From the IMG/VR virus record IMGVR_UViG_3300032285_002481, positions 1 through 25,043 of that record: a stretch of DNA of 25,043 nt; one strand, 5' to 3'. The position numbers were made by a program, and so were the translations under genes. The DNA is from a virus. Of this stretch, positions 9,777-18,020 are shown piece after piece. Positions within the stretch are counted from its first letter, which is position 1. Every line of letters starts with the position of its first letter. Below the pieces are notes generated by a model. That model saw nothing but the letters and a program-made list of their open reading frames with translations. It ran no database searches and had not been told where the DNA came from.

Positions 9777-12700
9777 TTAGAAGTGTTTGCTCATAGCCGA
9801 TCTCATGGAGTCACGATTTGCATGTAGTTTGTTGGCGAAATCATCTTTCTCCTGAGTTGTTTTCATAGAGTTATGAGTCATCACCATGTGTCTGGCTAGA
9901 TGTCTACCGACCTTGGTCTTAGATCCATCTTTGTGCTCGTAATGAGGCTCTCTACCTTCAATAGAGTGAGCGATCTTCTCAAGCTGCTGCATTGGATGCT
10001 TGTGAGTATCATCAACTTCAGCTTCCTGACCTGCTGGTAGAGGATTCTTTCTTGGACGACCGCGACCTTCTTCAATCTCAACTTCTTCCTTGTGAAGTTT
10101 GATCTGTGACTTTGGAAGTGTTACAGAATTGGATCTATTGTTGTAGTCGACAGTATATTTCTTTTCGGACTTTTTGTGAAGACCATGGTCTATTTCGCCT
10201 ACGTTACCAATAACTCCGTGATAATCCTTGCCCGGAGCATGCACCTTTACTCTAGAGCCTATCTTGATAGCCTCCTGGAGATCAACTTCTTCCTTACGAA
10301 GCTTCTTCTCATCAGAGATTGTATAATCAGCTGTTGAGTTTTTTGTATTGAAACCGCTCTGGTCCTGATTAGCTCCGCGAGTTGGAGCTGAAGTAGCAGT
10401 TGTAGGCGCAGATGATTTCTTTACGGCTTCATCGATTTCCGTTTGAAAAGAACTTGCAATATCCGCAATACGAGCTAGCTCTTCTTCAGAGAACTCAACT
10501 TCTTCTTTAGCAAGACGGTCGGCTGCTTTAACAATACCCATTTGACGATTTTGCATTTTATTTAATATTTTATCTCTAGCGTCTGGGTGCGTTTTTGTGA
10601 TTTGACCAAGATGTTCTAAATCTCTAGGAGAACCAGAACTTGTCGCAGCTTTCTTGACATACGAAGCAAGAGTTGACCTCTTCAGCTCATCAAGTTGGTC
10701 AACTTCTTCGCCCATTTCTTTCTTGGACATACCAGCAGCTTTGACTTTTACATCCTTAGAGCCGATAGACTTCTTTAGAGCCAGGTCCATACCTGCTTTG
10801 CGCTGCCCACCCTTTGTTGGGTCCATTCTTTCAGATTTAGCTGAATGCATGTAACGTTGAAGTGTGTCCTTCGAAACTTCTTCAATGCCTTCAACTTCTT
10901 CTTTAATACCATATGGGTGTTCTTTGAATATCTTTTCGGATTTAGCTGCTAATGATTTACCTGCGATAGTGCTACCATTTCTGCTCTGAATGAGTTTATC
11001 TTCAATAGAAGCAGAATGCTGCATATGTGCGTTGTATGCTTTTTTATCGCCAGCTTTACGAGCGTATTCAGCGGCAGATCTATGCTTGTCTTGAAGTTTA
11101 TAAGCGTCTTTTACAGACATTGTATTTTCAATAAGATCCTCAACTTCTTCTTCCTTAACCACACCGCGACCGACTAACACATCCTTGTGCGTGATCTTGT
11201 CCTTTGGTGAAGCTAGAGCAGCAAGCTTCTTTTCTTTTTCAGTTTTGGGTTCAGTTCCGGACTTTGTTTCTTCCTTTACTGCCTTCTTCTTGCCCTTTGC
11301 TGCGGCATCATCATCATTTTGCTTGTCGTCGGTTTCCGGATCAAGATCAACAGCAGTCTTACCGCCTGTCATCTTCTTTGGATCCTTTTCGTCTTCGTCT
11401 TTCTTCTCGACGATTTGACGAACTGCGTCGATAAGGCTCTTAGGAAGCCCAAAGTTTGGTAGTGACATGGTTGGTTTTTCCTCTACGATTTTTGTTTTGA
11501 TTTGACCGGTTTTACTCAAAGTGGATTTTTCTGATGTAGGTTTGGCGCCATCCATACGAGCAACGTTCTCGATCTTTTCGCGCTTCTCTGTATTGGTTTC
11601 TTCTCTCAATTTTACGCCGTGATAATCTTGATCATCGCCTACTCTAGATTGTATGTAAGGACCATTTGATTCCATATGTTTCTTTGCTTTTTGAACCAAG
11701 TCGGGATGTTTCTTTTTTAGTTCTCTATAATGATCTTGGTGCTCTTTTTTCCACTCGGATCCTGCATGAACGTCCTTTGGCATATACACTGGTGATGCTG
11801 GGGAAAACAAATGGTGAGCTTCTTTTGGATTGTGCTTTAATGCATGATTAAGTTTTGCAGTCATCCATTCTTTAGCTTTATTACCTTCCGGATATTTTGG
11901 TAAATCTTTTTGATCGGACTTTTTACCGAAACCAAATATTTCGTTGATGGTTTCTTCGCCCAGAGTGTCAACCTTTTTTCCATCAACGTACAGATTGTGT
12001 CTGATCTTTCTGTTCGGATTCAGTTTTGTGATAGTCTCGTGTTTCTTTCTGGCTTCTTCTTCCGAAGCGTGATAGCTCTTCGCATCGTGCATTCCGCTCT
12101 CGCTTCCGTCTTTCTTGAGAGAAACAAGCACAGCTGATTTTTTTGCGTCCGAAGCAGCAGATCTTTGTTTTCTAATATCGCTGGCAGCATTTTTCCAACC
12201 CTTGATTGCTTCTTCGAGCTTATGTTCAATCACTGCTCTGTGTTTTGGACGTTCGACCTTGATGCCTCTTTTAGCAAGTTCTTTTCTTGCTTTCAATTCG
12301 TTATCAATCTGATCAGCAAAACCTGGGTGACTGTATGTCAGCTTTTTATTATTCGGATTGGTAATACTGGCGTGAGCTCTTTGATGAATACCTCTGATGG
12401 TTTCGGTATCAACATTAGGTCCGATATTAGCTTCAACAACCGTATCTTCGTGTAAACCTTTGTATTCAATAGACTTCACACTATGAACACCGAAGTTTTT
12501 TGCAGCATAACGAGCGGCTTTATCTCTTGCTGTTCTTGTATCATGCGCCGGAACCGTCAACTTGATTTTAGTTCCCTTGGGCTTGGCGCCAATAGGTTCT
12601 ACAGTTTTATCATCAACCATTTTACCAAGTCTCGTATCATCCGCATGTAGATGAACGTGAAACACATGTTTGGATTCGGTCATAGTTTCTTCTTTCAGAG

Positions 12701-13262
12701 AATGTTGATGTTGTTGAACAAAATATTCTGCAGCATCTTTTGAATTGTTATGGTATCTGTTATGCCTATTAAATTGTAGACCGTTCGCATCGCTATGAAT
12801 AGCGTATTTTGTAATATCTTTTCTAGACGCAACGTAACGCTTACCGGGAATTTTAGTGTCTTTATAAGCACTGGAAGGTTCTAGCGTAGCTACTTTTTTG
12901 CCTTTATGATGGATATCGTAAGTCGGCTTACCATCCGGATGAGCGGTAGTTGATTTCTTGCCAGTCTTTACTAGTTTATAATCGGGATGTATTTCTTCCT
13001 GCAATTCTTCAGACATTTTCATCGTTTCATTTCGACGCTGTTTAGCTTCTCTATTACGTTTCTCAACTTCATCTTCGCGTTTCTCTGCACTGTCAGCAAC
13101 AGCTTTTTTAGATGCAAGTTCGTGCGATTGAGCTCTATGCGCTCCGATATTCAATCCGCTTTTATTACTAGAAGATGATGTGTGTCTAAAAACACTTCCA
13201 CCAGAGCCAACTGGTTTACCTTGGCTTACAATGCCTTCTAGGATAGACTTGATGTCTCTCAT
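9777..13262 (-). CDS. Modular basic/acidic head-associated protein, possible polyprotein (1161 aa)
   Basis: The protein is a chain of basic, often His/Lys-rich modules separated by acidic linkers: HSLKEETMTE (188-197), GLHEDTVVEA, KLEEAIKGW, TLGEETINEI, KLREETNTE, GIKEEVEGIEE, MGEEVDQLDE, LAKEEVEFSEEE, RKEEVDLQEA, HKEEVEIEEG (1057-1066). Two modules are related: IEEVSKDTLQRYMHSA (793-808) and LDELKRSTLASYVKKA (857-872), a motif I recall from internal or structural proteins of marine T4-like phages. Residues 998-1056 look like an SH3/KOW-type barrel (IGSRVKVHAPGKDYHGVIG). GRGRPRKN (1066-1073) is an AT-hook. Most linkers hold an (I/L)-x-E site, the T4 prohead-protease consensus, and the N-terminus MRDIKSILE|G has one too. 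It overlaps the Dps stop by ATGA. I infer packaging inside the head and possible processing; no enzymatic domain is visible. Confidence 0.85.
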   Translation of the reverse strand: MRDIKSILEGIVSQGKPVGSGGSVFRHTSSSSNKSGLNIGAHRAQSHELASKKAVADSAEKREDEVEKRNREAKQRRNETMKMSEELQEEIHPDYKLVKTGKKSTTAHPDGKPTYDIHHKGKKVATLEPSSAYKDTKIPGKRYVASRKDITKYAIHSDANGLQFNRHNRYHNNSKDAAEYFVQQHQHSLKEETMTESKHVFHVHLHADDTRLGKMVDDKTVEPIGAKPKGTKIKLTVPAHDTRTARDKAARYAAKNFGVHSVKSIEYKGLHEDTVVEANIGPNVDTETIRGIHQRAHASITNPNNKKLTYSHPGFADQIDNELKARKELAKRGIKVERPKHRAVIEHKLEEAIKGWKNAASDIRKQRSAASDAKKSAVLVSLKKDGSESGMHDAKSYHASEEEARKKHETITKLNPNRKIRHNLYVDGKKVDTLGEETINEIFGFGKKSDQKDLPKYPEGNKAKEWMTAKLNHALKHNPKEAHHLFSPASPVYMPKDVHAGSEWKKEHQDHYRELKKKHPDLVQKAKKHMESNGPYIQSRVGDDQDYHGVKLREETNTEKREKIENVARMDGAKPTSEKSTLSKTGQIKTKIVEEKPTMSLPNFGLPKSLIDAVRQIVEKKDEDEKDPKKMTGGKTAVDLDPETDDKQNDDDAAAKGKKKAVKEETKSGTEPKTEKEKKLAALASPKDKITHKDVLVGRGVVKEEEVEDLIENTMSVKDAYKLQDKHRSAAEYARKAGDKKAYNAHMQHSASIEDKLIQSRNGSTIAGKSLAAKSEKIFKEHPYGIKEEVEGIEEVSKDTLQRYMHSAKSERMDPTKGGQRKAGMDLALKKSIGSKDVKVKAAGMSKKEMGEEVDQLDELKRSTLASYVKKAATSSGSPRDLEHLGQITKTHPDARDKILNKMQNRQMGIVKAADRLAKEEVEFSEEELARIADIASSFQTEIDEAVKKSSAPTTATSAPTRGANQDQSGFNTKNSTADYTISDEKKLRKEEVDLQEAIKIGSRVKVHAPGKDYHGVIGNVGEIDHGLHKKSEKKYTVDYNNRSNSVTLPKSQIKLHKEEVEIEEGRGRPRKNPLPAGQEAEVDDTHKHPMQQLEKIAHSIEGREPHYEHKDGSKTKVGRHLARHMVMTHNSMKTTQEKDDFANKLHANRDSMRSAMSKHF

Positions 13263-13693
13263 TTACCTGTAGCTTTCAGCATCCAGCCATGTTTTGAATG
13301 AATGTCAATACGGTCCTGCATGAAGTTAGAAAGACCTGGTTTATTTTCTTTTTCAGCCAGAACGTATGCCTTTGTCAATTCCGCGATAACCTTCTGATTA
13401 TCTGATTCCAACTCAGAGAACATTGCTCTTGCATTTGGAATATTGATTTGATCATCAACAACCGAAAGCTGGGAAAAACGACCGAGGCTACCAGGAGCGT
13501 AAGCATCAAGTGCTCTAATGTGTTCAGCAATAGCATCTACAGCCTCCCAAACTTCGTTATACAGTCCATCAAGAAAGGAATGATACTGAGGAAAGTTAGG
13601 ACCCTCAATATTCCAATGAAAATTGTGAGCCTTCAGATAAAAAGCGAAAGAGGACGCTAGGACCACTTTCATTTGCTGAACAAGCTGATCCAT
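13259..13693 (-). CDS. dps: Dps/ferritin-like DNA-protection protein
   Basis: Dps proteins form dodecamers that oxidise and store iron and shield DNA. The 144 residues carry the complete Dps ferroxidase pattern: H26 (in HNFHWN), H38, D42, D53 and E57, with spacing equal to E. coli Dps H51, H63, D67, D78 and E82. The family's 'GPNFPQYHSFLDGLYNEVWEAVDAIAEHIRALD' core and the C-terminal helix (HSKHGWMLKATG) are present. The long Lys-rich N-terminal DNA-binding tail of E. coli Dps is missing (start MDQLVQQMK). DNA contact may therefore be weak or supplied by partners. The gene is locked between the membrane coiled-coil gene (TAATG overlap) and the modular 1161-residue gene (ATGA overlap), inside the late block, so it is made when heads are assembled. 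Confidence 0.93.
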   Translation of the reverse strand: MDQLVQQMKVVLASSFAFYLKAHNFHWNIEGPNFPQYHSFLDGLYNEVWEAVDAIAEHIRALDAYAPGSLGRFSQLSVVDDQINIPNARAMFSELESDNQKVIAELTKAYVLAEKENKPGLSNFMQDRIDIHSKHGWMLKATGK

Positions 13694-13990: not shown

Positions 13991-14407
13991 TTATCCTCCA
14001 TTTCCGCCACCACCTGAGCTTCCGCTCTTTCCGGGTGGATGTTTTTCTATTTTACCAGATGCCATTCTAATCGCCACCATTGGCGTAGAAACTTCTTTAC
14101 GTTTACCAGTTGTTCCAGCTGGAACGCTTAGTTCGTTTAGTCTGAATACATGCGTCACATATGATCTGTTCTTACTAGCTCTACTCTTTTGTTCGCGATC
14201 GCGACTACCAGACTGCGAAGCCAGTTTGAAATGACCTTTCTTAACCAAGTTGTGAGCTGCTTCCAACTCTCTGTTTTTTCTTGGGTTGTGACTTATTTCA
14301 TGAGTCACTGATACCATTTTTTGCGGATGACCGTGAGCTCTATCAAACAAATCTTTTTCTGTCTTATTTAACGCGGCTTCTTTTATGTAGTTTTTGTATG
14401 ATTTCAT
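13991..14407 (-). CDS. Basic late protein with a T4 capsid-targeting-like N-terminus (138 aa)
   Basis: The N-terminus MKSYKNYIKEA matches the T4 internal-protein capsid-targeting sequence MKTYQEFIAEA at 6 of 11 positions, and the others are largely conservative. It places the (I/L)-x-E cleavage site at IKE|A. The rest (HGHPQKMVSVTHEISHNPRKNRELEAAHNLVKKGHFKLA) is strongly basic with many His, resembling T4 internal proteins in character though not in sequence. The C-terminus is a Gly/Ser-rich tail (PPGKSGSSGGGGNGG). It sits in the late block, starting 1 base after the DUF6321-like gene's stop. I infer a head-internal, possibly injected protein; its biochemical activity is unknown. Confidence 0.75.
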   Translation of the reverse strand: MKSYKNYIKEAALNKTEKDLFDRAHGHPQKMVSVTHEISHNPRKNRELEAAHNLVKKGHFKLASQSGSRDREQKSRASKNRSYVTHVFRLNELSVPAGTTGKRKEVSTPMVAIRMASGKIEKHPPGKSGSSGGGGNGG

Positions 14408-14408
14408 A

Positions 14409-15164
14409 CTAACAATTCCACTTTCTCAATGCTTTATTGATGCGGGAATCTGGATCGTGCGCAGTTTTGGCGCTAGTCAATCTCTTTTTCATACCACCCA
14501 TGCGAGCACAAAATGATTTACGACGGCTGTGCGCTTTAGTGCCCTTCTTGAGTTTAGAAGGTTTGGTAGTTACTGGCGCTTGAAGATGGCTTCCGGTAGT
14601 TCTGTTGTAATGATCTCTACCTTTCTGACTCAAACCGCCATTCGGGTTTTGATATTCGTTTTCGTCGATGTCTTTTTTCTTACCGCAAGTGCAGACACCA
14701 CCACACTCATAAAGAACTTCCTCGATAACTTTCTTTACGATTCTTTTTGATGACTGACCTGGAGTGTCTTTCTTATAAGTGTCAACCAATTCTTTAGACC
14801 CTTCAAATCTAGAAGATGGCTTCATTTTATTTTTTGAATGAACCTCAGCATCTTCTTTCATATCTTTTGGTTTCTTGCCAGCCTTTTTCATAGAGATAGC
14901 GATTGCCGCTTGCTGCGCTGGAGAAACTGCTTCTGGAACGCAATCAGGAACCATTCTGTTTCCCTTCTTCTTCATACCAACTTTCTTGTATCCGTCCCAG
15001 CATGCCTCGTCGACGCTATCTTCTTTCATTGCAGCCATATTGTCAACAAGATTTGGATATGGGCGACCAGCTGCTCGCGCGCGTGCTTTCGCGCTCTTGA
15101 CTTGAGAGCTTGACATACTTTTCCCTTTAGACGGGACTTCGTGATTCCAAGGTTTGTCTGACAT
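14409..15164 (-). CDS. Lys/Cys-rich late protein with DUF6321-like C-terminus (251 aa)
   Basis: The C-terminal ~85 residues (NPNGGLSQKGRDHYNRTTGSHLQAPV...KKGTKAHSRRKSFCARMGGM...ALRKWNC) match a phage domain I recall as DUF6321, with the invariant 'RRKSFCARM' and terminal 'LRKWNC'. The middle has a 'CWDGYKKVGMKKKGNRMVPDCVPE' module common in marine T4-like phages and a Cys cluster YECGGVCTCGKKKD that could bind metal. The N-terminal part (SSSQVKSAKARARAAGRPYPN) is basic and DNA-binding-like. (I/L)-x-E sites occur at IEE|V and IDE|N. A perfect late promoter (15185-15192) and GGAG 6 bases before ATG precede it. It opens the sub-operon running through the Dps and modular genes. A head-internal or DNA-associated role is inferred; function is unknown. 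Confidence 0.8.
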   Translation of the reverse strand: MSDKPWNHEVPSKGKSMSSSQVKSAKARARAAGRPYPNLVDNMAAMKEDSVDEACWDGYKKVGMKKKGNRMVPDCVPEAVSPAQQAAIAISMKKAGKKPKDMKEDAEVHSKNKMKPSSRFEGSKELVDTYKKDTPGQSSKRIVKKVIEEVLYECGGVCTCGKKKDIDENEYQNPNGGLSQKGRDHYNRTTGSHLQAPVTTKPSKLKKGTKAHSRRKSFCARMGGMKKRLTSAKTAHDPDSRINKALRKWNC

Positions 15165-15184: not shown

Positions 15185-15192
15185 TATTTATA
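15185..15192 (-). promoter_or_regulatory. T4-type late promoter (TATAAATA)
   Basis: A perfect minus-strand TATAAATAC lies in the 55-base gap before the DUF6321-like gene, about 20 bases from its ATG. It would start the transcript carrying the head-associated cassette down to 9777. Confidence 0.85.
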
Positions 15193-15219: not shown

Positions 15220-17202
15220 CTAACGAGATTTCAATCTCTGAAACACTCTGCTCAACAAATCGTTGATCTCTTCGGTTACATTGGTTTTTTGTTTGACAGC
15301 TTTCGGTTTTCTAACTGGTTTCTTCATAGCTTTCATACGCTGTCTGCGCTCGACCTCGGCGCGAGCTTTGACGCCGATTGGGTCATTACGTTTAGCGTAT
15401 TTACCAAGTGATATACCGGAAGTCTCAGGACCAATCTGAATGTCCATACCTTTACGAACATCATTGAACATCTCGCGCGCATGCTCGGGATGGACATGAG
15501 GAGGAATACCTTTCTTGAACTCACCGAATCTGTTTGTTATAGCGTGGGCGCGCATTTTTGAGGCTGACATACCTGTAACACCCTCAGCATCTGGATCGCG
15601 TTCGCCAGCCGAAACAACGTCAATTTTTTTGAAATTGAACTCTCCGTTCGGACCGTTATATCTATCTAACAGCTTCTTATATTCATCGACACGGTCAGAA
15701 CCAGCGACCATGGTCGCATGAGTCACACCTTGTTTATGAAGCTTTTTCAGCTGTTCGATGAACGTGGGAGCATCGTCATCTGCCGCAGTGATGTTAGCTC
15801 CTGGAAAAAATCTCTTGGCGTGTTTCAGTTTCTGCTCCGGAGTCAGAGGATTCTTCTCTGGATCCTGTGAGCTAGAGATAACGATAGAATGACCTGCTTT
15901 CTTAGCAGCTGCTAGTTCCCTGACTTTATCAACTAGAGCTCCGTGACCGACGGTCGGAGGATTCATTCTACCAAAGGCGAACACATGTTCCTTATCGCCT
16001 TCTTCTGTCGGAGTGGCGTCCGGTTCGCCTTTACCTCTGTTGTTAGCGAAATTGAGTCTGCTGAACTCGGCTCTATCAACCAGCTTCGTAGGTTTACCGT
16101 CTCTAATTGAAACAAACCCTTCAGGCTTGACCTGTTTACCGCCGACGGTATTTTCAAACTCTGTAGGGTTGCCTAGAGCTTTTACCAGAATGTCTTTCGC
16201 GGCTTGTAAATGATGATGAAGATCGAAAGCTGACTTGTATTTTTCTTCGTTTGTTTTCAGGTCGTCTATGAGTTCGTTGTATGCGCCAGCTTTCTTTTCT
16301 TTGGCTGCTTCTGTCTTCAGTTTCTCTGTTTCTTTGTTTCGTTTGTCTTCAAGAAACTTCATGTAATCTTTTACGTTAGGTGTAGTTCCGTCTCTAACGG
16401 TTTGATTGATGTATGGTTTGATGAATGTATCGTGTTTGCTTAGAGATTCTAGAACGTCAGTACCTGTATTTCTGTATGCTTCATCAGCAGCTTCTCTATG
16501 TTTAGCGTATTCAGCTTGCATAGCTTTGGTGTATTTTGACTTGCTTGTATCGTTGACTTCTGGATTGACTAGGTTTACGTCTGGGTCTTGTTTGAACTTT
16601 GAATGATCAACATCGAATCCTGCCTTCATATCGGCAAGATTCTTTCCTTTGTATTTCGTATGAACAACAAATCCTATCTGAGAAGCTGCTATCTTTCTAC
16701 CTTGCGCACTGTCTTTATCGGCTGAATATGTAATCGTATTAGGAGCAAACTTGTACTTACCACCCTCGTCTTCAATGTCTGGTTTGTCGTAAAGGAAGTC
16801 GCCTTGATACACACCACCTTCTTTTGGCATAATCTTTTGAAGATGCGCAAGAGCCACTTTCAACTTAGCAACAAGACCAGGAGCGTGACCGTGGTTCTGC
16901 TCGATGTCTTTATCGGTGTAGTTGATTTTTGGATTTTTGTTGAATGCTGACTTCGAGGCTACAAAAAACTTACCATTCTCTGGGTTGATACCGAACACAA
17001 TTGAAGGCGAACCATCGTACTTGGTTGTAATCTTCGACTTAGACTTACCACCTGTAAGAAGGCTGTGAAGATCATCTAGGTTGTCGGCAGCATGCGCAAC
17101 ACCAGCATCGCCTCCATGAATGATATGATCCTCGGCATGTTCTAGATGCTTGAGCTTATCGACATCGAGGGATTCGATCAAAAACGTAGAGAATGTTATC
17201 AT
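15220..17202 (-). CDS. Fusion of a KxDG ligase-like domain and an HxGH-type nucleotidylyltransferase domain (DUF6267-like, 660 aa)
   Basis: The N-terminal domain has the hallmarks of covalent nucleotidyltransferases (ATP/NAD ligases, capping enzymes): K61-Y-D63-G64 (motif I nucleophile), GVYQGDF (130-136, motif III region), E361-GFV (motif IV) and K373-LV (motif V). I recall phage proteins of this type as DUF6267. The C-terminal domain (about 405-585) is a nucleotidylyltransferase of the NMNAT/cytidylyltransferase superfamily: FAFGRMNPPTVGH (408-420), VAGSDRVDEY (499-508) and GMSASKMR (544-551, ISSTxxR-like). In the first motif the first His is replaced by Thr417, as in other phage members. 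The N-terminus MITFSTFLIE|S resembles the T4 capsid-targeting peptide with an LIE cleavage site. The ATG lies 2 bases after the upstream stop. Domain assignments are firm; substrates (NAD, RNA or a sugar nucleotide) are unknown. Confidence 0.85.
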   Translation of the reverse strand: MITFSTFLIESLDVDKLKHLEHAEDHIIHGGDAGVAHAADNLDDLHSLLTGGKSKSKITTKYDGSPSIVFGINPENGKFFVASKSAFNKNPKINYTDKDIEQNHGHAPGLVAKLKVALAHLQKIMPKEGGVYQGDFLYDKPDIEDEGGKYKFAPNTITYSADKDSAQGRKIAASQIGFVVHTKYKGKNLADMKAGFDVDHSKFKQDPDVNLVNPEVNDTSKSKYTKAMQAEYAKHREAADEAYRNTGTDVLESLSKHDTFIKPYINQTVRDGTTPNVKDYMKFLEDKRNKETEKLKTEAAKEKKAGAYNELIDDLKTNEEKYKSAFDLHHHLQAAKDILVKALGNPTEFENTVGGKQVKPEGFVSIRDGKPTKLVDRAEFSRLNFANNRGKGEPDATPTEEGDKEHVFAFGRMNPPTVGHGALVDKVRELAAAKKAGHSIVISSSQDPEKNPLTPEQKLKHAKRFFPGANITAADDDAPTFIEQLKKLHKQGVTHATMVAGSDRVDEYKKLLDRYNGPNGEFNFKKIDVVSAGERDPDAEGVTGMSASKMRAHAITNRFGEFKKGIPPHVHPEHAREMFNDVRKGMDIQIGPETSGISLGKYAKRNDPIGVKARAEVERRQRMKAMKKPVRKPKAVKQKTNVTEEINDLLSRVFQRLKSR

Positions 17203-17204
17203 TT

Positions 17205-17936
17205 TTATACCTTTACGATCAACCCACCAGAGGGAACTTTGTCCGTAACGACTATTCTTCCGGCTGAATCTCCTTTTGATGGTGATTTTCCGTAAATTTT
17301 AGGCGTTCCTTTATTGTCCTTAGCAGTCGGATCGAATCTTTGATCTTCTCTTCTCGCTCTAAGGCGGAAAAACAACTTATGTGTTTTAGCGTAATCATTA
17401 CTTTCGTGAAACTCGCCGTTCAACAATTGCAATTTATTATTTTTTTCGTCGTAATTTGAAGATACGTCCATAGCTCCGATATACATATAATCTATTGGAC
17501 CGCCCATGAGTTTGTTTCCGACGACAATTTTGGTTTTTGATTGACTGGCTATTTCGCCGAATACGTCGGGAACTTTGTCTCCCGGTTTTAATTTTTTAAT
17601 ATTCGTCAGAGCGTTGAACGCTTCTTTTAAAAATTTTTCAGTTAAACCTGGAACAGCCAATTCAAGACCTTTAAGACCGCCGCCAGCAAGAGAAGGCGCT
17701 GAAGGACCTTTACAAGAAAGATTAATCTGTTTTTTATCGTAAGTCATCAAAATAACGTCGGTGTAAGGTTCTGAACCTCCAGCTTGTCTTCCTGAAAATT
17801 TTTCAGCGTCTACAACGCCCTCTATTATAATTTTCCCGGCGATCACTGTAACTGGATTATTTTTGTTCTTTTTTACTGCATCTTTGATAGCTTTTATCAA
17901 ACCAGTTTCTTGTCTTTCTGCAGACTCTCCAGCCAT
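17205..17936 (-). CDS. Late protein of unknown function with a faint PD-(D/E)xK-like pattern (243 aa)
   Basis: I do not recognise a named family. Residues (numbered from the start chosen here) about 10-80 read GLIKAIKDAVKKNKNNPVTVIAG...QAGGSEPYTDVILMTYDKKQINLSCKG. A helix, then D-x(n)-(S/E)-x-K between two strands, is the outline of restriction-endonuclease-like cores; this is suggestive only. The middle (GLKGLELAVPGLTEKFLKEAFNALTNIKKL) is helical and the C-terminus is basic. I chose ATG 17936, preceded by GGCGAG, because the late promoter 17972-17979 would start RNA only a few bases before or within the ATG at 17969, and the longer frame begins with an implausible TTG at 17984. It is the first gene of the late block and ends 2 bases before the ligase-like fusion gene, so the two are co-expressed. 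The gene looks more A/T-rich than its neighbours. Confidence 0.7.
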   Translation of the reverse strand: MAGESAERQETGLIKAIKDAVKKNKNNPVTVIAGKIIIEGVVDAEKFSGRQAGGSEPYTDVILMTYDKKQINLSCKGPSAPSLAGGGLKGLELAVPGLTEKFLKEAFNALTNIKKLKPGDKVPDVFGEIASQSKTKIVVGNKLMGGPIDYMYIGAMDVSSNYDEKNNKLQLLNGEFHESNDYAKTHKLFFRLRARREDQRFDPTAKDNKGTPKIYGKSPSKGDSAGRIVVTDKVPSGGLIVKV

Positions 17937-17971: not shown

Positions 17972-17979
17972 TATTTATA
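17972..17979 (-). promoter_or_regulatory. T4-type late promoter (TATAAATA)
   Basis: A perfect minus-strand TATAAATAA lies just downstream of the terminator at 17983-18020. It marks the switch from the early replication block to the late block and fixes the start of the 243-residue gene at 17936. Confidence 0.85.
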
Positions 17980-17982
17980 AAC

Positions 17983-18020
17983 AAAAAAAGGGTTGGACCT
18001 TCCGATCCAACCCCTCTTTT
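17983..18020. terminator. Symmetric intrinsic terminator between early and late blocks
   Basis: An 8-bp stem GGGTTGGA (17990-17997) pairs with TCCAACCC (18006-18013) around an 8-base loop. It is flanked by seven A's on one side and a T-rich run on the other, so it can act in both directions. On the minus strand it ends the helicase transcript just before the first late promoter. Confidence 0.9.

What the first reader, a model, noticed from the sequence alone, without database searches (positions are those of the whole stretch)
15220..17202. Uncharacterised ligase-like plus NMNAT-like fusion enzyme
One protein joins a KxDG covalent nucleotidyltransferase domain (K61, E361 and K373 motifs in order) to an HxGH-superfamily nucleotidylyltransferase domain (GRMNPPTVGH, GMSASKMR). 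The second could make a dinucleotide cofactor such as NAD that the first uses, or the pair could repair, cap or modify RNA or DNA ends. Expression from a late promoter and a targeting-like N-terminus suggest it acts in or from the virion rather than during early replication.
Basis: partly seen in the sequence, partly recalled or inferred. Interest (0 to 1): 0.8.

Follow-up and report, generated by a model that had tools for sequence, protein, structure and literature searches.

The report
Head-packaged RNA-ligase-like/NMNAT-like phage enzyme
A T4-like virus of bacteria makes one protein that joins a predicted RNA-ligase-type enzyme to a predicted NAD-synthesis-type enzyme, and its first ten residues match the address tag that T4-like phages use to load proteins into the virus head for injection; this gives a widespread family of unknown function (DUF6267) a testable role.

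Summary
ORF 15220-17202(-), 660 aa, is a fusion of DUF6267 (PF19782, E 1.9e-100) and a HIGH-superfamily nucleotidylyltransferase. K61, E361 and K373 are invariant in 43 DUF6267 sequences. A DUF6267-only AlphaFold model (pLDDT 93) matches RNA ligases best (Z 9.4), and the rest of its top 50 matches are RNA or DNA ligases. So the covalent-nucleotidyltransferase reading is supported by fold plus motifs, although sequence profiles alone do not detect it. The C-terminal half has the PPAT/NadD/NMNAT fold, and HMM hits favour NMN/NaMN adenylyltransferase over cytidylyltransferase. The N-terminus MITFSTFLIE|S matches the T4 capsid-targeting sequence (IPIII MKTYQEFIAE|A) in length, register and key residues, and a T4 late promoter precedes the two-gene unit. 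Cyanophages carry the halves as neighbouring genes (T4-GC71, T4-GC190). All three mass-spectrometry-detected virion cytidylyltransferases that I checked carry the tag. Best explanation: a head-packaged, injected, two-module nucleotidyl-transfer enzyme acting at the start of infection, most likely on RNA ends and/or NAD+. Both halves have family names, and virion NMNAT-like proteins are known. New here are the ligase assignment of DUF6267 and the tag on this family. Substrates remain unknown.

The parts
15220..17202 (-). DUF6267 - nucleotidylyltransferase fusion protein, 660 aa
   Evidence: ORF;-5 families; 27 related loci in viral contigs
17173..17202 (-). Predicted capsid-targeting sequence MITFSTFLIE (residues 1-10), predicted cut by the prohead protease after E10
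   Evidence: same length and register as T4 IPII/IPIII MKTYQEFIAE, and like T4 gp24 LLRE|S and gp23 FLTE|A; residues 4 and 7 direct targeting, 8 and 10 processing in T4 (PMC9026906); regex in 86/259 family ORFs vs 34/1797 others
16039..17151 (-). DUF6267 domain (residues 18-388), predicted ligase/capping-superfamily covalent nucleotidyltransferase
17005..17022 (-). Motif I KYDGSP (61-66), predicted nucleotide-accepting lysine K61
   Evidence: K61, D63, G64, P66 invariant 43/43
16798..16806 (-). Motif III-like QGD (133-135)
   Evidence: Q133, D135 invariant 43/43; assignment as motif III inferred
16651..16671 (-). Motif IIIa-like stretch (178-184) with H181
   Evidence: H181 43/43, Y184 41/43; assignment inferred
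16174..16527 (-). Helical insertion between motifs IIIa and IV (about residues 226-343)
   Evidence: secondary structure of both models; much shorter in about 300-aa cyanophage members
16111..16122 (-). Motif IV EGFV (361-364)
   Evidence: E361, G362, V364 invariant 43/43; aligns to T4 RNA ligase 1 EGYV in the best, non-significant, profile comparison
16072..16086 (-). Motif V KLVDR (373-377)
   Evidence: K373, R377 invariant 43/43
15433..15996 (-). HIGH-superfamily nucleotidylyltransferase domain (403-590), NMNAT-like
   Evidence: Foldseek NadD 1.7e-4; VIA Z 12.6-14.4 to PPAT/NadD/NMNAT; TIGR00482 in 24/31 members, best 1.2e-8
15943..15972 (-). TxGH nucleotide-binding motif GRMNPPTVGH (411-420)
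   Evidence: G411, G419, H420 35/35, T417 34/35
15550..15573 (-). SxxxxR phosphate-binding motif GMSASKMR (544-551)
   Evidence: S546 34/34, R551 33/34; ISGTKMR/MSGTKMR in relatives
17205..17936 (-). Upstream gene of the same late unit, 244 aa, function unknown
   Evidence: ORF listed from an alternative TTG at 17984; relatives in PA5oct-like Pseudomonas jumbo phages and Synechococcus phage Sf-FS3
17972..17979 (-). T4-type late promoter TATAAATA

Best explanation
A late-expressed enzyme with two nucleotidyl-transfer modules, loaded into the prohead by a T4-type capsid-targeting sequence, trimmed after E10 by the gp21-type prohead protease, packaged with the genome and injected at infection. 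The N-terminal DUF6267 module is predicted to take a nucleotide, most likely AMP from ATP, onto K61 and pass it to a nucleic-acid end as RNA ligases do. The C-terminal module is predicted to transfer AMP from ATP to a small mononucleotide, most likely NMN or NaMN, giving NAD+ or NaAD. Together they would counter, from the first minute, host damage to RNA (such as cut tRNAs) and/or depletion of NAD+. Shown by computation: the fusion, both predicted folds, the invariant active-site residues, the tag and the late promoter. Shown by published proteomics in relatives: the tagged nucleotidylyltransferase is in virions. Inferred: packaging of this protein, trimming, injection, catalysis, the nucleotide used, and the targets.
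For: AlphaFold model of the DUF6267 domain, pLDDT 93; the 50 best VIA-align rows are all RNA or DNA ligases, led by Naegleria RNA ligase (Z 9.4, 3.6-3.9 A over about 185 residues), then T. brucei editing ligase, T4 Rnl2 and T4 Rnl1 (Z 7.6-7.8); Foldseek's leading rows are ligases and capping enzymes, though weak. Ligase-order residues K61-D63-G64, D135, E361-G362-V364, K373 invariant in 43 sequences. C-terminal domain matches NadD/PPAT/NMNAT folds and NMN/NaMN adenylyltransferase HMMs in 24/31 members. Tag identical in length and register to T4 IPII/IPIII; present in 38 of 40 fusions, one exception being 5'-truncated; it also occurs on DUF6267 alone, on the nucleotidylyltransferase alone, or on both. 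Virion cytidylyltransferases of S-SM1, S-SCSM1 and S-CREM2, found by mass spectrometry (PMC3037559; PMC9602691; PMC10665884), all carry it. The two domains are fused in 40 loci, adjacent or overlapping in about 174, and without the partner in the held stretch in 7. Strong purifying selection.
Against: Profile-profile comparison with T4 Rnl1 and Rnl2 families is not significant, Pfam RNA_lig_T4_1 appears in only 4/43 members with best E 0.0035, and Foldseek E-values for ligases are weak (best 0.017); only the structural second look is clear. Residue-by-residue correspondence to ligase active sites was not printed by the tools. No RNA-ligase C-terminal domain was recognised. Many cyanophage pairs (83 loci by a loose rule) have no recognisable tag on either gene, and the S-CREM2 DUF6267 is not in its virion list. 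One fusion, L222, lacks the tag. No activity measurement was found for any member.
Confidence: 0.6

Rival explanations
1. NAD+ restorer: the nucleotidylyltransferase is the working part (NMN + ATP -> NAD+), injected to offset host NADase defences or raise NAD+ for replication; the ligase-like module only modulates it or binds nucleic acid.
For: TIGR00482 hits in 24/31 members; cyanophage authors propose NAD+ synthesis for virion NMNAT-like proteins (PMC9602691; PMC10665884); phage NAD+ salvage by NadV/NadM/NadR is documented (PMC9503650).
Against: K61, E361 and K373 are as invariant as the HIGH motifs, so the first module looks catalytic; no NadV or other salvage gene was identified in the window; scores are far below the equivalog cut-off (12.6 vs 112.45 bits).
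Confidence: 0.3
2. RNA or tRNA repair enzyme: the ligase-like module seals broken RNA delivered at time zero; the second module supplies or recycles an adenylylated cofactor.
For: Nearest folds are RNA rather than DNA ligases; T4 Rnl1 repairs tRNA in restrictive prr hosts (T4 annotation).
Against: No kinase/phosphatase end-healing partner was identified next to it; no RNA-ligase C-terminal domain recognised; no substrate evidence.
Confidence: 0.3
3. Assembly-time role: the protein works during late infection or capsid assembly (modifying a head protein or DNA end) and is trapped in heads rather than injected to act.
For: Late promoter; T4 IPIII affects head assembly (PMC9026906).
Against: Two conserved enzyme modules plus a cleavable targeting tag parallel T4 Alt, an injected enzyme.
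Confidence: 0.15
4. Protein or small-molecule nucleotidyltransferase: K61 passes AMP or GMP to a host protein or metabolite rather than to nucleic acid.
For: No ligase C-terminal domain was recognised; a helical insertion and the second enzyme are present instead.
Against: All listed structural neighbours act on nucleic acid ends.
Confidence: 0.15

Closest known systems
DUF6267 (PF19782, phrog_455; T4-GC71 of T4-like cyanophages)
   Same: The N-terminal half is a clear member (E 1.9e-100); about 468 phage records hold it, nearly all cyanophages
   Different: Usually a separate gene without the tag in cyanophages; here fused and tagged; family function was unassigned and the name was found in no paper of the library
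Cyanophage 'cytitidyltransferase' T4-GC190 / virion NMNAT-like protein (phrog_3041, phrog_395)
   Same: Same domain; tagged in S-SM1, S-SCSM1 and S-CREM2, where it was found in virions
   Different: There a separate protein of about 190-430 aa; here the C-terminal half of a fusion
RNA ligases (Naegleria RNA ligase, T4 Rnl1, T4 Rnl2, T. brucei editing ligase)
   Same: Predicted nucleotidyltransferase fold; KxDG, EGxV and motif V lysine in order
   Different: No significant sequence similarity, no recognised RNA-ligase C-terminal domain, helical insertion between motifs IIIa and IV, D rather than E at the presumed motif III position, one lysine in motif V
T4 Alt and internal proteins IPI-IPIII
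   Same: N-terminal capsid-targeting sequence with gp21-type cleavage site; Alt is a packaged, injected enzyme
   Different: Unrelated enzyme: Alt is an ADP-ribosyltransferase, IPI a restriction inhibitor
Phage NadM (NMNAT-Nudix) and NadR (NMNAT-kinase)
   Same: HIGH-superfamily adenylyltransferase joined to a second enzyme
   Different: Partner there is Nudix or a kinase; here a ligase-like module plus a capsid tag

Membership tests
DUF6267 (PF19782) | Pfam gathering score (27 bits) | tested here: met
   337 bits, residues 18-388, nearly full-length model
Polynucleotide ligase / capping enzyme superfamily | Motif I KxDG with invariant lysine | tested here: met
   K61, D63, G64 in 43/43
Polynucleotide ligase / capping enzyme superfamily | Motifs IV (EGxV) and V (lysine) in order after motif I | tested here: met
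   E361, G362, V364, K373 in 43/43; V has a single lysine
Polynucleotide ligase / capping enzyme superfamily | Acidic residue in motif III, aromatic in IIIa | tested here: inconclusive
   Q133-x-D135 and H181..Y184 conserved; positions inferred, not superposed residue by residue
Polynucleotide ligase / capping enzyme superfamily | Nucleotidyltransferase fold | tested here: met
   All 50 best VIA-align rows are ligases, Z up to 9.4; Foldseek E 0.017 for the best ligase; predicted, not solved
Polynucleotide ligase / capping enzyme superfamily | Significant sequence-profile similarity (supporting, not defining) | tested here: inconclusive
   hhalign against Rnl1 and Rnl2 families not significant; PF09511 in 4/43 with best E 0.0035; members of this superfamily are often too diverged for sequence methods
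Polynucleotide ligase / capping enzyme superfamily | Lysyl-nucleotidate formation and end sealing | not testable with these tools
   needs assay
T4 RNA ligase families (Rnl1/Rnl2) | Family-specific C-terminal domain | tested here: inconclusive
   DUF6267 ends after motif V and the nucleotidylyltransferase follows; a cryptic equivalent cannot be excluded
HIGH-superfamily nucleotidylyltransferase | (H/T)xGH and SxxxxR-type motifs on the nucleotidylyltransferase Rossmann-like fold | tested here: met
   TVGH and MSASKMR conserved; fold matches Z 12.6-14.4
NMN/NaMN adenylyltransferase | Curated equivalog score (TIGR00482, 112.45 bits) | tested here: not met
   12.6 bits for the window; best E 1.2e-8 among relatives; hence NMNAT-like only
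NMN/NaMN adenylyltransferase | Synthesis of NAD+ or NaAD | not testable with these tools
   needs assay
T4-type capsid-targeted proteins | 10-residue N-terminus with aromatic 4 and 7, I/L at 8, E at 10 | tested here: met
   MITFSTFLIE vs T4 MKTYQEFIAE
T4-type capsid-targeted proteins | Presence in the virion with N-terminal trimming | not testable with these tools
   Virion presence known only for tagged relatives; I found no report of trimming

The most novel reading that the evidence does not exclude
An injected bifunctional machine in which the two AMP-transfer centres are chemically coupled through NAD+/NMN/AMP, for example the NMNAT-like module making the adenylylated donor that the K61 module uses to cap, adenylylate or seal RNA ends in the first minutes of infection. 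This would be a new class of phage-delivered RNA-end or NAD+ enzyme in abundant aquatic viruses.
Probability: 0.15. Interest if true: 0.9.

Novelty: new variant of a known kind. Interest (0 to 1): 0.62.

Why it matters
DUF6267 and its partner are carried by hundreds of sequenced T4-like cyanophages and by uncultured relatives, and the function of DUF6267 was unassigned. Placing it in the ligase/capping superfamily, and showing that this family shares T4's head-loading tag, turns a 'hypothetical protein' into a specific hypothesis about what marine and freshwater phages inject with their DNA. The tag also gives a simple sequence rule for finding other head-packaged enzymes.

Tried and rejected
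Phosphopantetheine adenylyltransferase as the second activity: PPAT tops the structural list (Z 14.4), but coaD HMMs match only 5/31 members weakly, against 24/31 for NMN/NaMN adenylyltransferase. True cytidylyltransferase: only the generic superfamily models (CTP_transf_like, cyt_tran_rel) match; no specific cytidylyltransferase model appeared. Sequence routes to a ligase assignment failed: PDB sequence profiles found no ligase, a single T4 Rnl2 gave nothing, and the Rnl1 profile only recovered motif IV-V without significance. Aspartate-semialdehyde dehydrogenase and VapB matches in NCBIfam are weak chance hits. The first full-length fold search was filled by the second domain, so DUF6267 was folded alone. 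'DUF6267' occurs in no paper of the library; 'capsid targeting' and 'cyanophage' occur together in one review only.

Full report
WHAT WAS CLAIMED AND WHAT IS THERE. The ORF at 15220-17202 on the minus strand is intact, 660 aa, with an ATG start. Pfam puts DUF6267 on residues 18-388 (E 1.9e-100) and a Cytidylyltransferase-like domain on 409-504, just below cut-off in this member; PHROGs gives phrog_455 (unknown) and phrog_3041/395 ('cytidyltransferase'). Other members reach E 2.8e-10 for CTP_transf_like. In the second domain G411, G419, H420, G501 and R535 are invariant and T417, S546 and R551 nearly so. Both halves are under strong purifying selection where dS can be measured (dN/dS 0.02-0.11).

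WHERE IT SITS. The window is a 25-kb uncultured virus record with T4-like replication genes: gp43 polymerase (about 51% identical to cyanophage gp43), UvsX, DnaB-like gp41 helicase and primase. Four exact TATAAATA sites occur, all on the coding strand, against 0.9 expected; only 1 of 100 shuffles reached four. The one at 17972-17979 precedes the 244-aa gene 17205-17936 (the ORF list gives it a TTG start at 17984; the ATG at 17936 lies behind an AAAGGAG-type ribosome site, read from the sequence), which is followed within 3 bases by this gene. So late expression as a two-gene unit is the simplest reading.

RELATIVES. 27 loci were found in viral contigs with the protein, and further scans gave more. 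The halves are one protein in 40 loci, adjacent or overlapping genes in about 174, on one locus but apart in about 8, and without a partner in the held stretch in 7 (I counted short overlaps as adjacent, and these loci were chosen by similarity, so they are not an unbiased sample). In cyanophages they are T4-GC71 and T4-GC190, downstream of gp41 and MazG. 468 phage records hold DUF6267, nearly all cyanophages, with a few Methylophilales, Pelagibacter, Vibrio, Pseudoalteromonas and Stenotrophomonas phages. On a DUF6267 tree the tagged fusions form one well-supported group; one untagged fusion (L222) is placed unsurely.

STRUCTURE. Full-length AlphaFold model: pLDDT 89. Its second domain matches NadD (Foldseek E 1.7e-4) and PPAT/NadD/NMNAT (VIA Z 12.6-14.4). 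Scanned one by one, 24 of 31 such domains hit TIGR00482 nicotinate (nicotinamide) nucleotide adenylyltransferase (best 1.2e-8), while coaD hits are few and weak. The window's own score is far below the equivalog cut-off, so the domain is NMNAT-like, not a proven NMNAT. DUF6267 was folded alone (pLDDT 93, pTM 0.90). The 50 best VIA-align rows are all RNA or DNA ligases: Naegleria RNA ligase Z 9.4 (about 185 residues, 3.6-3.9 A), T. brucei editing ligase 7.8, T4 Rnl2 7.7, T4 Rnl1 7.6, fungal Trl1 7.3. These Z values are middling, but the list is uniform in kind. Foldseek agrees in kind with weak E-values (best ligase 0.017). Sequence methods do not reach significance, though the best profile alignment to T4 Rnl1 pairs EGFVSIRDGKPTKL with EGYVAVMKDGSHFKI, that is motif IV with IV and V with V. 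Fold, motif order and invariance together make the superfamily assignment likely. Unlike the RNA ligases it has a helical insertion (about 226-343) between motifs IIIa and IV and no recognised C-terminal ligase domain.

THE N-TERMINAL TAG. T4 IPII and IPIII begin MKTYQEFIAE|A; T4 gp24 has LLRE|S and gp23 FGSFLTE|A (from NC_000866). In IPIII the first ten residues suffice for packaging, positions 4 and 7 matter for targeting and 8 and 10 for processing (PMC9026906). The window protein begins MITFSTFLIE|S: F4, F7, L8, E10, in exact register. A strict regex (M, 1-4 residues, F/Y, 2, F/Y, hydrophobic, any, E) matches 86 of 259 family ORFs and 34 of 1797 other ORFs in the same loci; those 34 include T4 IPII and IPIII themselves and a gene of S-CRM01 annotated as a kinase, a phage in whose virions a protein kinase was reported (PMC10665884). 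The tag is modular: on the fusion (38/40; one of the two exceptions is truncated), on both separate genes (L020), on DUF6267 only, on the nucleotidylyltransferase only (P-SSM4 group), or on neither. Independent check: the virion cytidylyltransferases of S-SM1 (PMC3037559), S-SCSM1 (PMC9602691) and S-CREM2 (PMC10665884) were found by mass spectrometry, and all three carry the strict tag. S-CREM2 DUF6267 (58911-59756) is absent from its virion list, which would fit an untagged protein staying out, although I did not read its N-terminus. The S-SCSM1 major capsid protein keeps an FLAE|A site. Some virion proteins without the tag lie in the same cyanophage blocks, so the tag is not the only way in, and the authors of PMC10665884 caution that co-purification is possible.

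HOW IT PROBABLY WORKS. Shown by computation: the fusion, two predicted folds, intact active-site residues, tag, late promoter. Shown elsewhere: tagged relatives are in virions. Inferred: this protein is loaded into proheads, trimmed after E10, packed with the DNA and injected like T4 Alt; K61 accepts a nucleotide; the second module adenylylates a mononucleotide. The most economical purpose is protection of RNA and/or NAD+ at the onset of infection. Which one, and whether the two modules share substrates, cannot be decided here. Rivals are listed with refuting results.

NOVELTY. Virion-borne NMNAT-like proteins in cyanophages and T4 capsid-targeting sequences are known. I found no earlier statement that DUF6267 is ligase-like or that this family bears the capsid-targeting sequence; the library holds only open-licence papers, so this is not proof of absence. 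I therefore call it a new variant of a known kind.

Noticed in passing
13991-14407 (-): 138-aa ORF beginning MKSYKNYIKE|A, a second capsid-targeting-like N-terminus much like T4 MKTYQEFIAE|A; likely another head-packaged protein.
   Followed up: partly
9777-13262 (-): 1161-aa protein with no PHROG hit, N-terminus MRDIKSILE|G and many recurring KEEV/LxE segments, as if a polyprotein cut by the prohead protease.
   Followed up: no
14409-15164 (-): Protein ending in DUF6321 (tail CARMGGMKKRLTSAKTAHDPDSRINKALRKWNC), directly behind its own late promoter at 15185-15192.
   Followed up: no
17205-17936 (-): Upstream partner gene is shared with PA5oct-like Pseudomonas jumbo phages and Synechococcus phage Sf-FS3; one of the former, Cassandra, also has a free-standing NMNAT-like gene.
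   Followed up: partly
residues 19-25 of the protein, 17128-17148 (-): HLEHxED ahead of motif I: H19, H22, E24 and D25 invariant in 43/43 sequences; role unexplained, possibly metal or triphosphate binding.
   Followed up: no
13259-13693 (-): Ferritin/Dps-like protein (PF00210, E 2e-25) among the late genes.
   Followed up: no
L033 6526-8991 (S-CRM01): Protein annotated as serine/threonine kinase carries the strict tag MISFDQFLSE; a kinase was reported in S-CRM01 virions, so the tag may predict virion enzymes generally.
   Followed up: partly
KF156340 and BFVD H8ZNG8: Members of this family appear under the name 'ribonucleotide reductase A' in some cyanophage records.
   Followed up: no
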